Shown here: positions 13,114 to 34,167 of the stretch, piece after piece | How positions within the stretch are numbered: position 1 is the stretch's first letter | Layout: each line of letters starts with the position of its first letter | Assembly: GCA_944324965.1 (NCBI GenBank) | Contig: CALUYH010000004.1 | Location: forward strand, 1-64,000 | DNA length: 64,000 nt | Direction: 5' to 3' | From: Candidatus Avelusimicrobium gallinaceum | GTDB taxonomy: Bacteria; Elusimicrobiota; Elusimicrobia; Elusimicrobiales; Elusimicrobiaceae | Position numbers and translations under genes: made by a program | Notes under the pieces: model-generated | Told to the model about the DNA's origin: nothing | The model's input: only the letters and a program-made list of their open reading frames with translations | The model's database searches: none

Positions 13114-14316
13114 ATGATACATACATCCGGATATAATCCCAAAAAACGCGTGTGGTTGTTGCTGGTGCTGGCCGGCATTTTGCTGCTGGGCATGCAACCG
13201 GCCTGGGCGGGCAACCCGCTGAAAACGGTGTTTAAAGGCGCCAAAAAAGTTTCCGCCCCCCGTAAATTTTCTTCCCAACAATTAGAAAGAATTTTGGCCA
13301 ACCGCGCGCAAATAAGCCGCCAGAAATTTCCGCCTTTATCTGCCCAGCAGCGGTTACGGGTATATGATACAGACTTGCCGGTGAAAAGCATTTTGAGATG
13401 GGACGTATCCCGCGGGCCGCAAGTGTCTTACGAAAAACTGCCTTTTTGGCGAAAACTTTCCGAACAGGGCAAATATAATTATTTCTTGGCCGCCAACAAC
13501 CGCGCTTCCAAGCGGGCCGTTGCCATGCGTTTGCGCGCAGTGGAAAACATTCAAAAAAATGTAAAAGAACTGTGGAATAAACGCCAAACGATTCCTGCGG
13601 AATTGCCGGAACAAACCCTGCTGCGGGCGATTAAACCGCAAGACCGGTATATTTTGATTGGGGAAGAACACGACACCCCGGAAGTGCAAGATTTTTTGAT
13701 TCGGTTTTTAAAAACCTATCAGGCCAAATACAGCGGACGCAAAATTGTGCTGCTGACGGAATTTTTGCCGGCCGGTAAAGACAAAACCTATATTGTGCAG
13801 GAAAAGCGTTCCATGGACCCGGCCTACGGCAATTTCTTCGTGTGGGCGCAGGCACACGGCATCAATATAAAAGGCGTGGAGCCGCGGTATGTGTTCTTCC
13901 AAAATGCGTTTGCGGCGGCGGACCCGGTGTTTAAAACGGAAGAAGCCACTCAAGATTTATGGATTTTGCCGGAAAGTATGCGGCTGCGCAATACGTTTTG
14001 GGTAGAGCAAATCCAAAAGTGGCGCGAGCAGTATCCCGATGCGGTATTTATCCTGTATGCCGGTGCGGAGCACGTGGCGTACAATGCGCCTTTTTCGGTG
14101 GCCGATATGCTCCCTGCCGAAAGCACATTCGTCGCGCATGTGTTCGGGCCGCGCGGGCCTGGCGAAAACCCGGGGTATGACTTTTTGGATGAAATCGGCG
14201 GTCTTCAGTATCCGTTCTGCAAACAGCGGATTCTTTCGTGGGACAGCCCTGCGTTAAGGCGGATAGCCGGGTTTGATATGCGCCTGATTGTGAAAGGGAC
14301 CCAATCCAACAAATAA
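13114..14316 (+). CDS. Secreted GEEH-type protein 1 (ChaN/TIKI/EreA-like fold predicted)
   Basis: 400 residues. Signal peptide ending ...GMQPAWA, then a mature protein with GEEH (residues 182-185), LLTEFLP, KGVEPRYV (about 254-261), RLRNTFWVEQI and FILYAGAEH (about 312-320), and a closing YPFC...AGFDMRLI. Spaced H, E, E and H on alternating beta-strands are the pattern of the haem-binding-uptake/TIKI superfamily (ChaN, EreA, TraB), whose members bind haem or act as metal-dependent hydrolases. Activity here is unknown. Start chosen at 13114 from GGGAGCG upstream. The next gene is a clear paralogue, 67 bases downstream. Confidence 0.72.
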   Translation: MIHTSGYNPKKRVWLLLVLAGILLLGMQPAWAGNPLKTVFKGAKKVSAPRKFSSQQLERILANRAQISRQKFPPLSAQQRLRVYDTDLPVKSILRWDVSRGPQVSYEKLPFWRKLSEQGKYNYFLAANNRASKRAVAMRLRAVENIQKNVKELWNKRQTIPAELPEQTLLRAIKPQDRYILIGEEHDTPEVQDFLIRFLKTYQAKYSGRKIVLLTEFLPAGKDKTYIVQEKRSMDPAYGNFFVWAQAHGINIKGVEPRYVFFQNAFAAADPVFKTEEATQDLWILPESMRLRNTFWVEQIQKWREQYPDAVFILYAGAEHVAYNAPFSVADMLPAESTFVAHVFGPRGPGENPGYDFLDEIGGLQYPFCKQRILSWDSPALRRIAGFDMRLIVKGTQSNK

Positions 14317-14383
14317 AAACGGGCGCTGCCCACCCCGGACCCGGATGCACGGTTTAAACCGGCGCCCCGATGGGAGAAAACGA

Positions 14384-15640
14384 ATGAAAAGGAAACCGAA
14401 CACTATATTTTTATTTTCTGCCGTTGCGCTGGCGGGCCTGTGTGTTTGGGGCGGGCAGCCGGCGGCGGCGCAGCGCTTTCCCAAGACGGCGCTGAAATGG
14501 AAATTTTCTTTTTCCCACCAATTGACGGCGGCGAAAGTGGAACGCATTTTGGCGGAGCGCGTAAAACGCACGGCCAAACAACTGCCGCCCATTCCCAAAC
14601 AGTATTTGCGCGCTTGGGGCGCGGAAGAACTCCCTGCCGAGAATCCCGTTTACTGGAAGGCGCGGCGGCCTTTTGCAGGGCCTTATGATGAGGTGCCTTT
14701 TTGGGATAGGCTTTCCCCGCAAGCCAAGCAGAACTATTTTCTGTCCGCCAATAACCGTGCTTTGCAAACACTAATCCGGGACCGCACGCGCGCGTTGGAC
14801 AATGTCCGCCGTCTGGGCCCCGATTTGTGGAAGCAGCGCGTTCGCTTTCCGCAGCGCACGTGGGACATAGCCGCCCTGAGCCAGTTTATGCTGCAACGCG
14901 TGCCCAAAGACGTAGATTACTTATTGTTGGGCGAAGAACACAACCAGCCGGTTATTCAGGCGCTGGTACTGCGCTTTTTGCGGCAGTACAAAGCGCAAAA
15001 CCCGGAGCGGAAAATTTTTCTGTTGACGGAATTTTTGCCTAAGGGCGGGGTTAAAAATTTGACGTTAAAACAAGAGGAACGACTCTTCCCGCGCTACGCG
15101 CGTTTATTGGCCTCGGCACAAAAGGCGGGGCTGTATGTGCGCGGGTTGGAACCGCCGTTTGCCGTTTATTCGCAAAGTGGTACGGTAGTGGACTCCCGCG
15201 TGCTGGATTGCGGGGAAGATGTATCGGTAGTGGACACGTTTTCCATGCCCGAAGGGGTGCGCTTGCGCAACCGTGCGTGGCTGGAAGAAATAAAATCTTT
15301 GCGTAAACAATATCCGGATGCCCTGTTTATTATTTATGCGGGGGATATGCATTTAAATTATGAATCTTCGCAGTCGGTGGGCGTCCAGCTGCCTCCAGAA
15401 AAAACATTCTTCATCAGCGTGTTGTTCCGCACCAAAGAGGAACGCCCGATTATGCATACGCTGGACCTGCTGCCTCAATCCCGCTACCCGTTTTGGAACC
15501 AAAAAGTGCTGACATGGGAAGATCCTGCCTTGCGCCGCGCGGCCGGGTTTGATATACGCATCCTCCTTACGCCGGAAGACGCAGTGCGGCCGGCCAACGT
15601 CCGAAAGCCTTTGCCCGGGGGAAATAGCAACAGGCGATAA
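14384..15640 (+). CDS. Secreted GEEH-type protein 2, paralogue of its neighbour
   Basis: 418 residues with signal peptide MKRKPNTIFLFSAVALAGLC...AAA, start fixed by GGGAGAA. It aligns with protein 1 along its length: KVERILAERVK, VPFWDRLS, NYFLSANNRA, LLLGEEHNQP (GEEH about 183-186), IFLLTEFLPKGG, VRGLEPPFAVY, GVRLRNRAWLEEI, FIIYAGDMH and AAGFDIRI. The N-terminal SxQLxxxKVERILAxR helix is shared with protein 1 but not with protein 3. The tandem arrangement implies duplication; differences outside the motif core suggest old divergence or different ligands. Confidence 0.72.
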   Translation: MKRKPNTIFLFSAVALAGLCVWGGQPAAAQRFPKTALKWKFSFSHQLTAAKVERILAERVKRTAKQLPPIPKQYLRAWGAEELPAENPVYWKARRPFAGPYDEVPFWDRLSPQAKQNYFLSANNRALQTLIRDRTRALDNVRRLGPDLWKQRVRFPQRTWDIAALSQFMLQRVPKDVDYLLLGEEHNQPVIQALVLRFLRQYKAQNPERKIFLLTEFLPKGGVKNLTLKQEERLFPRYARLLASAQKAGLYVRGLEPPFAVYSQSGTVVDSRVLDCGEDVSVVDTFSMPEGVRLRNRAWLEEIKSLRKQYPDALFIIYAGDMHLNYESSQSVGVQLPPEKTFFISVLFRTKEERPIMHTLDLLPQSRYPFWNQKVLTWEDPALRRAAGFDIRILLTPEDAVRPANVRKPLPGGNSNRR

Positions 15641-15666: not shown

Positions 15667-15694
15667 AAAAACCCGGCGCAAAGGCCGGGTTTTT
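15667..15694 (+). terminator. Terminator of the GEEH tandem pair
   Basis: AAAAACCCGGC, loop GCAAAG, GCCGGGTTTTT, 27 bases after the stop codon. Confidence 0.85.
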
Positions 15695-15804: not shown

Positions 15805-15879
15805 TGGTGCCCAGTATAGGGATCGAACCTATGACCTTTCCCATGTCAAGGGAACGCGCTACCGCTGCGCCAACTGGGC
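15805..15879 (-). tRNA. tRNA-Val (anticodon GAC)
   Basis: A 75-base cloverleaf: acceptor gcccagt/actgggc, discriminator A with encoded CCA, anticodon stem TTCCC/GGGAA with loop TTGACAT (anticodon GAC, reads GUC/GUU), T-loop GTTCGATCC. Confidence 0.96.
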
Positions 15880-32763: not shown

Positions 32764-34167
32764 TTAAATGTACGAGTCGCCGTAGCGCAGGCTGTCCCGG
32801 TTTTTGAGCCTGGGGGACACTTTCGGCAATCCATCTATGGATTTAGGGGCGACCGGGCGCAGTTTTTGGGGCGAAGCGGCGGGTTGCTCCTGTTGCGGCC
32901 GGGAAGCATTCGGCTCCTTTTTGGGCTGCGGCTTGATTTCGGGCATTTTTACGCCGTCCAACGGCAGGTAAATAAGGACCTCTTTGCCGGGGATATTTTT
33001 GTTGTATAAGGGGAAAAATGAGTTGGTCTGCCCCCAAAACGGCTTTTTAGGGTCGGTCCATTCTCCCGATATTTCCGTTTGATCTAACAATACTTGGTCT
33101 GTTTGGTCTTTCAGTTCATAGGATTGGTCAAACGCCCCCAGATTTTGCCGATAAGTGCTTTCCGCGACGGATATGTACGTTTGTTCTTCGTCGGGATTGG
33201 TGTCTTCTGTCGGGACAAAAACCAGGTTAACAAAGTCCGGCGTATCCAACAAGGCGGGCAAATCGTTAGATAACGTGTTTACTATATGCCCTTGGCCGGC
33301 GTATATTACAATGATGTCATAAAACGGCTGTACTGCTTTGATGTAGCGCACCCATTGGCGGTTGCGTTCCAAAATGCCAAAAGGAGAGGACCCCACCGTC
33401 ATTTCAAGGACGGGATATAATTCTTGGATATTGGCTTCTTCTTGACGCGTCAGGTAGCGCTTTACAAGGTATTTCCCGCATTGGATAAGCAAAAAAGACC
33501 CGTGGCCGTCTTCTTCCCAGCTGACATAGCGGCTGTCTAATCCCAGTTGGTCAATGTTTAAGGCATCGGCGGCTTGGTTTACTTCTGGGTAGAGGTTAGC
33601 CATGAGGTGAATCTCATTGGCTTGCACCAAAGGAGAGTCGTTTGGTTTCTCTGTCACAGAAAATTCCGACGCCAACAAAATGCGCTTGTCTGGGTGCAGC
33701 TTGCGCAGGGCCTGCAAGAGGCGAACTGTTTCCGCCGGGGTGGACGTAGTGCCATGCTCTTCCCCTATATAGATGTGGGTAAACCCTTTTAACAGCTCTG
33801 TATAATCCGGCCAAGAGTTCTGAAAAGCTATTTTGTCTTTGTCCGCGGCAGACTGTTGCTGCGCTAATTTTAAATCCATTTTCAGGGAAACGAGCTCCCG
33901 TTCTTTGGCCCGGTTGTTTAAGGCTTTAAATTCTTTCCAGGAAATAGTTTTTATCGGGTTTTTTTGCATCACATCCTGCAGCGCTTTTTGGGCACCGGAG
34001 AAGTACGAATCCTGGCGTGGGGCCTGTTTTTTTATTTGTTCTTCAATTTTTGAGGCAATTTTGCCTGCAGGCCCTTTTGGTGGAACGGAAGGCAGGCCCG
34101 GGAGAACTTGTGCTGCCGCCAGAATAGGGCAGAGGGACAGTAATAACAGAAGGGTAATGTGTTTCAT
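32764..34167 (-). CDS. Secreted GEEH-type protein 3
   Basis: 467 residues. Signal peptide MKHITLLLLLSLCPILAAA, a charged helical region, then the family core: HIYIGEEHGT (GEEH about 135-138), RILLASEFSV, LGLDSRYVSWEE, RNRQWVRYIK and IIVIYAGQGH (about 286-295). It continues into a ~170-residue C-terminal extension that is Pro/Lys/Gln-rich near its end and is absent from proteins 1 and 2. One Cys (LIQCGKYL) in the core. Start at 34167 follows from a TATCAT box 6 bases upstream. Single gene. Function unknown; a metal- or haem-binding TIKI/ChaN-like fold is inferred from the H/E spacing. Confidence 0.7.
   Translation of the reverse strand: MKHITLLLLLSLCPILAAAQVLPGLPSVPPKGPAGKIASKIEEQIKKQAPRQDSYFSGAQKALQDVMQKNPIKTISWKEFKALNNRAKERELVSLKMDLKLAQQQSAADKDKIAFQNSWPDYTELLKGFTHIYIGEEHGTTSTPAETVRLLQALRKLHPDKRILLASEFSVTEKPNDSPLVQANEIHLMANLYPEVNQAADALNIDQLGLDSRYVSWEEDGHGSFLLIQCGKYLVKRYLTRQEEANIQELYPVLEMTVGSSPFGILERNRQWVRYIKAVQPFYDIIVIYAGQGHIVNTLSNDLPALLDTPDFVNLVFVPTEDTNPDEEQTYISVAESTYRQNLGAFDQSYELKDQTDQVLLDQTEISGEWTDPKKPFWGQTNSFFPLYNKNIPGKEVLIYLPLDGVKMPEIKPQPKKEPNASRPQQEQPAASPQKLRPVAPKSIDGLPKVSPRLKNRDSLRYGDSYI

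What the first reader, a model, noticed from the sequence alone, without database searches (positions are those of the whole stretch)
13114..15640. Tandem secreted GEEH...YAGxxH proteins: a candidate undescribed family
Two adjacent paralogues, both with signal peptides, share IxGEEH, LLTEF, G[VL]EP, RLRN..W..EI and [FI]I.YAG..H, with GEEH at almost the same residue number. The alternating H/E pattern suggests the ChaN/TIKI/EreA fold, in which members bind haem or cleave peptides or esters, but the N-terminal ~150 residues (KVERILAxR, NYFLxANNRA) match nothing I know. Two copies side by side and a third at 32.8 kb suggest an expanded envelope or host-facing function.
Basis: partly seen in the sequence, partly recalled or inferred. 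Interest (0 to 1): 0.65.

Follow-up and report, generated by a model that had tools for sequence, protein, structure and literature searches.

The report
Expanded secreted Tiki/Ere-like hydrolase family
Two neighbouring genes of an uncultured gut bacterium encode exported proteins with the fold and conserved active-site residues of the erythromycin-esterase/ChaN/Tiki superfamily, and they belong to a very large, fast-diverging family in this genus, much of which sits in one fixed slot inside a phage-derived, gene-transfer-agent-like gene cassette.

Summary
Window 13114-14316 and 14384-15640 (+) encode two exported paralogues (38% identical) with the shared motif chain; the third copy (32764-34167, -) is a true member. 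AlphaFold models (pLDDT 89.8 and 85.5) match EreA/ChaN/Tiki-superfamily structures (HopBA1, BcR135, RRSP, ChaN, EreC). Across 71 relatives H199, E229, R308, G333 and H336 of P0002 are invariant, and order and spacing fit the EreC catalytic set E47/H50/E78/R261/H289. Pfam ChaN (PF04187) matches both window proteins only below threshold; NCBIfam has nothing. Best reading: exported hydrolase; substrate unknown, catalysis not shown. The family is almost confined to one gut genus of Elusimicrobiaceae (40 of 53 genomes, 1-26 copies; 12 in this genome). Unexpectedly, in at least 15 genomes, and in this one, runs of 1-10 members lie between the terminase and portal genes of a phage structural cassette. 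That cassette is single-copy in about 50 of 53 genomes, absent from sister genera, at conserved loci, under strong purifying selection, without integrase or replication genes: gene-transfer-agent-like. The window pair belongs to a separate chromosomal branch. Fold and catalytic constellation are known; the expansion and its link to this cassette appear new.

The parts
13114..14316 (+). Paralogue 1 (P0001, 400 aa): exported Tiki/Ere/ChaN-like protein; signal peptide about residues 1-32; putative active-site residues E184, H186, E216, R292, H320
   Evidence: invariant columns; model pLDDT 89.8; fold matches
14384..15640 (+). Paralogue 2 (P0002, 418 aa from the better start; 431 aa from ORF start 14345); putative active-site residues E197, H199, E229, R308, H336 (431-aa numbering)
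   Evidence: model pLDDT 85.5; fold matches
13669..13671 (+). Codon of H186 (GEEH), proposed catalytic base of paralogue 1
   Evidence: analogy to EreC H50
14939..14941 (+). Codon of H199 (GEEH), proposed catalytic base of paralogue 2
   Evidence: analogy to EreC H50
15671..15694 (+). Stem-loop with T run after paralogue 2: probable end of a two-gene operon (28-bp gap between the two ORFs as listed)
   Evidence: read directly; not listed by the consensus scan
32764..34167 (-). Third paralogue (P0003): GEEH, SEF, RNRQW, YAGQGH; C-terminal proline-rich tail; best start ATG at 34167
   Evidence: (E 4.9e-83 with the family profile)

Best explanation
P0001 and P0002 are exported (periplasmic or extracellular) hydrolases of the EreA/ChaN/Tiki superfamily. 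An alpha/beta core carries an active site made of GExH (His as general base, oriented by the preceding Glu), a Glu at the end of the next strand, an Arg and a second G..H His, which activates water to cleave an ester, amide or peptide bond; a variable N-terminal helical region and the long loops between the motifs set the substrate. The family multiplied by gene duplication in one gut genus of Elusimicrobiaceae so that each cell exports several differently tuned enzymes. Shown: sequence family, predicted fold, invariant residues, expansion, branch structure. Inferred: export, catalysis, catalytic roles, substrate diversification.
For: Confident models of both proteins; apart from P-loop proteins, the top Foldseek matches are superfamily members: HopBA1 E 3.5e-5, RRSP 1.2e-4, BcR135 1e-3, PMT C-region 2.2e-3, ChaN 2.6e-3, EreC 3.1e-3 (similar). 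H199, E229, R308, G333, H336 are invariant in 71 sequences mostly 20-30% identical to the query. The EreC mechanism uses E47, H50, E78, R261, H289 (PMC7979712); spacing H-E is 30 here against 28, R-H 28 or 32 here against 28. Conserved residues follow successive predicted strands (H199 after 192-197, E229 in 224-233, E269 ending 264-269, H336 after 327-333), as expected for one pocket. Profile-profile comparison with canonical ChaN of sister genomes aligns the same His, Glu and G..H (prob 85, E 6.1e-6). Signal peptides, no lipobox.
Against: No biochemical data. Model coordinates could not be read, so clustering of the residues in space is inferred from topology. Foldseek E-values are modest (1e-5 to 1e-3) and global TM-scores low (0.3-0.4 of the query). 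The superfamily also contains non-enzymatic members (ChaN). One paralogue (C5 copy, L015:7627-8637) keeps Glu and Arg but has lost both His, so not every copy can work this way.
Confidence: 0.62

Rival explanations
1. They are haem- or cofactor-binding, non-catalytic proteins like ChaN of Campylobacter jejuni.
For: PF04187 (named for ChaN) is the only Pfam family that matches consistently, 57 of 71 members at E<=0.01; ChaN structure 2g5g is among the fold matches.
Against: Full conservation of His-Glu-Arg-His fits a hydrolase; the sister-family ChaN has Trp where these have invariant Arg; no lipobox; no haem-uptake gene recognised beside the copies read (gene lists without full annotation). 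Twelve haem carriers in a 1.5-Mb genome would be odd.
Confidence: 0.12
2. They are binding or adhesin-like surface proteins on a hydrolase scaffold, diversified by selection for variable surfaces rather than for catalysis.
For: Very fast divergence, tandem arrays, copy number 0-26 between related genomes; one copy has lost both His.
Against: The proposed active-site residues are the only strictly invariant positions in 71 sequences, with one Gly, which a pure binding role would not require.
Confidence: 0.15
3. They are effectors against competitors or host cells, exported and released when the phage-like cassette lyses the cell.
For: Arrays lie in the terminase-portal slot of a cassette that also has an endolysin-like gene; the nearest folds include bacterial effectors (HopBA1, RRSP).
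Against: The window pair is not in the cassette; no immunity or delivery genes identified; nearest-fold similarity does not carry function.
Confidence: 0.11

Closest known systems
Erythromycin esterases EreA/EreC and BcR135/BcR136 (PF05139)
   Same: Predicted core fold; order and spacing of Glu/His, Glu, Arg, His (EreC E47/H50, E78, R261, H289; PMC7979712).
   Different: No PF05139 match in any of 100 genomes of the phylum; the Glu is two residues before the His here, three in EreC; extra helices are N-terminal rather than the minor lobe of EreC; exported; substrate unknown.
ChaN, haem-binding family (PF04187)
   Same: GExH, following Glu, G..H; profile-profile match E 6.1e-6; sub-threshold Pfam match.
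   Different: No lipobox; invariant Arg where sister-family ChaN has Trp; about 150 extra N-terminal residues; multicopy. The environmental sister family keeps 1-3 PF04187 genes, the best at E about 1e-55, which this genus lacks.
Tiki / TraB / RRSP peptidase branch of the superfamily
   Same: Same superfamily; RRSP is a close fold match of P0001.
   Different: No TraB-family Pfam match; no evidence on peptidase activity.
Gene transfer agents (for example RcGTA) and domesticated prophages, for the cassette that holds the arrays
   Same: Single copy, conserved locus, packaging, head, tail and lysis genes, no integrase or replication genes, purifying selection, tracks a host core gene.
   Different: Podovirus type (capsid 41% identical to BcepC6B, 40% to phiV10); has a slot filled by a secreted-hydrolase array; gene transfer not shown.

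Membership tests
EreA/ChaN/Tiki superfamily | Common alpha/beta core fold | tested here: met
   AlphaFold models of both proteins and Foldseek matches
EreA/ChaN/Tiki superfamily | GExH ... Glu ... (Arg) ... G..H constellation | tested here: met
   Invariant or nearly so in 71 sequences
EreA/ChaN/Tiki superfamily | Conserved residues meet in one pocket | tested here: inconclusive
   Strand order fits but coordinates were not readable
ChaN (PF04187) | Pfam gathering score | tested here: not met
   21.9 and 22.6 bits against 27.7; some paralogues pass
ChaN (PF04187) | Lipoprotein anchor (as I know it for C. jejuni ChaN) | tested here: not met
   Signal peptides end AWA|G and AAA|Q, no lipobox Cys
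ChaN (PF04187) | Haem binding | not testable with these tools
   Needs purified protein
Erythromycin esterase (PF05139) | PF05139 domain | tested here: not met
   No PF05139 match in own genome or 100 genomes; none in the Pfam scan
Erythromycin esterase (PF05139) | Catalytic Glu, His, Glu, Arg, His | tested here: met
   By order and spacing only, not by superposition
Gene transfer agent (cassette, not the window pair) | Single-copy, vertically kept structural cassette at a conserved locus | tested here: met
   Portal in 49/53 and capsid in 50/53 genomes, capsid 0/18 in sister genera; conserved flanks; Mantel r 0.85 with DnaE, 0 of 300 permutations
Gene transfer agent (cassette, not the window pair) | No integrase or replication genes | tested here: met
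   Gene lists of the regions of 10 genomes with annotation of the cassette genes
Gene transfer agent (cassette, not the window pair) | Packages and transfers host DNA | not testable with these tools
   Needs particles

The most novel reading that the evidence does not exclude
Gut Elusimicrobiaceae carry a podovirus-derived gene transfer agent whose terminase-portal slot is an evolving store of secreted Tiki/Ere-like hydrolases: the agent and the enzymes are co-expressed, lysis releases the enzymes, and members occasionally move from the slot to chromosomal loci.
Probability: 0.25. Interest if true: 0.85.

Novelty: new variant of a known kind. Interest (0 to 1): 0.6.

Why it matters
It gives an uncultured gut lineage a dominant, largely unannotated exported enzyme family (up to 26 copies in about 1.4 Mb) with a testable active site, and it ties that family to a cassette that behaves like a gene transfer agent. 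No description of such an agent in Elusimicrobiota was found in the held library. If it is one, it would add a phylum and a phage type to the known agents, with a cargo slot.

Tried and rejected
PDB sequence search with the family profile: nothing relevant. NCBIfam: no match. PF05139 in the phylum: none. Viral contigs with A3: no relative; phage records with a slot protein: none; PHROGs with family members: nothing meaningful; the viral fold library gave two weak matches. The first genome-contig query (A2) was too diverse to search with. Idea that the pair is a very recent duplication: rejected; they are 38% identical and paralogue 1 groups with the single copy at the same locus in L025. Idea that the cassettes are ordinary scattered prophages: unlikely given one copy per genome, conserved flanks and the DnaE-like history. 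One PHROG call failed on wrong coordinates and was repeated.

Full report
What is there. Two adjacent + strand genes encode exported proteins of 400 and 418 residues (431 from the ORF start), 38% identical over 387 residues. They are separated by 28 bp as ORFs and followed by a stem-loop with a T run at 15671-15694, so they are probably one operon. The shared motif chain occurs in three window ORFs, the third being 32764-34167 (-), and in none of 172,000 shuffles. A tRNA-Val gene lies just downstream on the other strand (15805-15879).

Family. Own-genome searches found 12 members in 1.49 Mb: four on contig C4 (three in the window), one each on C1, C5 and C16, and five in a row on the 9-kb contig C25. 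In the genus, 40 of 53 genomes (at least 85% complete) have 1-26 copies and 13 have none at E 1e-12; outside the genus only three genomes of the family have one or two weak ones. Named relatives are Elusimicrobiaceae/Elusimicrobiales metagenome genomes (records titled Elusimicrobium sp., Elusimicrobiales bacterium, UBA1436 and others). That the genus is gut-associated is inferred from these record names and from general knowledge of the group.

Superfamily. Pfam's ChaN family PF04187 matches below its cut-off for the window pair, for 57 of 71 relatives at E<=0.01, and above the cut-off for some copies; NCBIfam has nothing. Models of both proteins are confident (pTM 0.82 and 0.84).

Active site. 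In 71 sequences mostly 20-30% identical to P0002, H199, E229, R308, G333 and H336 are invariant, and G196, E197, E269, N309, W312, Y331 and D403 nearly so. EreC uses E47 and H50 (base), E78, R261 and H289 (PMC7979712). Order and spacing agree: H to E 30 residues here against 28; R to H 28 (mostly chromosomal branch) or 32 (mostly slot branch) against 28. This is analogy, not superposition. Compared with canonical ChaN of sister genomes, His, Glu and G..H align but Arg is Trp there. The C5 copy has lost both His and keeps Glu and Arg: a natural pseudoenzyme candidate.

Evolution. The environmental sister family has one to three PF04187 genes, the best at E about 1e-55, which this genus lacks; descent from such a gene is plausible but not shown. 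The tree separates chromosomal and slot members: 4 label changes against 27 in shuffles. The window pair is in the chromosomal branch with the single copy at the same locus (between aldolase/endonuclease IV-like and ankyrin/dnaE genes) in L025. Slot members form three clades, and two groups seem to have left the slot for the chromosome, one being the own copy at C4:95.5 kb. Several long branches, the third window copy among them, are unsure.

The slot. In L032-L038, G007, G028, G069, G034 and G020 the arrays lie beside a terminase large-subunit gene upstream and/or a portal (head-tail adaptor) gene downstream, followed by scaffold, major capsid, tail, internal virion, tail-fibre and endolysin-like genes; the full order terminase-array-portal was read in G007, G028, G069, G034 and G020. 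Matching contig positions of family and portal hits gives at least 15 genomes with members next to the portal. In six genomes without an array the terminase-portal gap is 0.4-1.0 kb. The own contig C25 has terminase pieces (in two frames), five family genes, and ends in the first 71 bases of the portal gene. Caution: a genome of nearly the same species (98.97% over 9.7 kb) has a different array and terminase (75% identity), so C25 is either a swapped allele or mis-binned.

The cassette. Portal in 49 of 53 and capsid in 50 of 53 genomes, nearly always one copy, capsid in none of 18 genomes of sister genera. It lies in one of two conserved chromosomal neighbourhoods, next to type IV pilus genes or next to ksgA-like and MatE-like genes, usually with the same O-antigen-ligase-like gene nearby (gene names from reading the sequences). 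Capsid distances follow DnaE distances (r 0.85, 0 of 300 permutations), and the capsid changes more slowly than DnaE; capsid dN/dS is 0-0.04 against 0.12-0.30 for slot enzymes, the latter with nearly saturated dS. No integrase or replication gene is in the 17-18-kb cassette. Gene order matches phage BcepC6B, which has no such array. This is what a gene transfer agent looks like in sequence; transfer is untested.

Judgement. Fold and family placement are well supported, hydrolase function is likely, substrate is open. The window pair by itself is a new branch of a known superfamily; the wider pattern is the more surprising part.

Noticed in passing
L014, L032-L038, L051, L053, L084-L103: Phage structural cassette (terminase to endolysin, 17-18 kb), one copy in nearly every genome of the genus, without integrase or replication genes: candidate gene transfer agent.
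   Followed up: yes
L045:5005-9138 (G000:C11): Three tandem exported trypsin-like proteins; one passes Pfam Trypsin_2. Where GDSGGP is expected they read GLCG[SC]P or similar, so the nucleophile may be Cys.
   Followed up: partly
L048:4808-6070 and L048:8021-8965 (G000:C9): Two further exported proteins with GEDH...VEF...RN...GGALH and RHG...VERE...GAGH, possibly other Tiki-like branches; Pfam gives nothing, and the profile comparison gives E 2.9e-4 for the first and nothing for the second.
   Followed up: partly
family signal peptides (alignment A4); own-genome stretches: 64 of 71 members have Gln at the aligned position just after the signal peptide (A.A|Q), and Gln is also the commonest +1 residue in a crude scan of other exported ORFs; recalls the Q-rule known from Bacteroidota.
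   Followed up: partly
L017:2191-3192 and L024:9721-10749: An exported trypsin-family protein (Pfam Trypsin 33.7 bits for L017) follows the family gene or array at the rplA locus in two species.
   Followed up: no
L030:419-4975: Two long exported proteins (719 and 788 aa) with partial matches to the family (E 2e-23 and 5e-28) next to normal copies.
   Followed up: no
L046:3778-8681 (G000:C5): Four tandem ORFs of about 400 aa on one strand, not identified.
   Followed up: no
L016, L018, L031, L038, L051: Type IV pilin-like genes (GFTLIELLVVVLIIGI) repeatedly lie near family genes and at the cassette ends.
   Followed up: no
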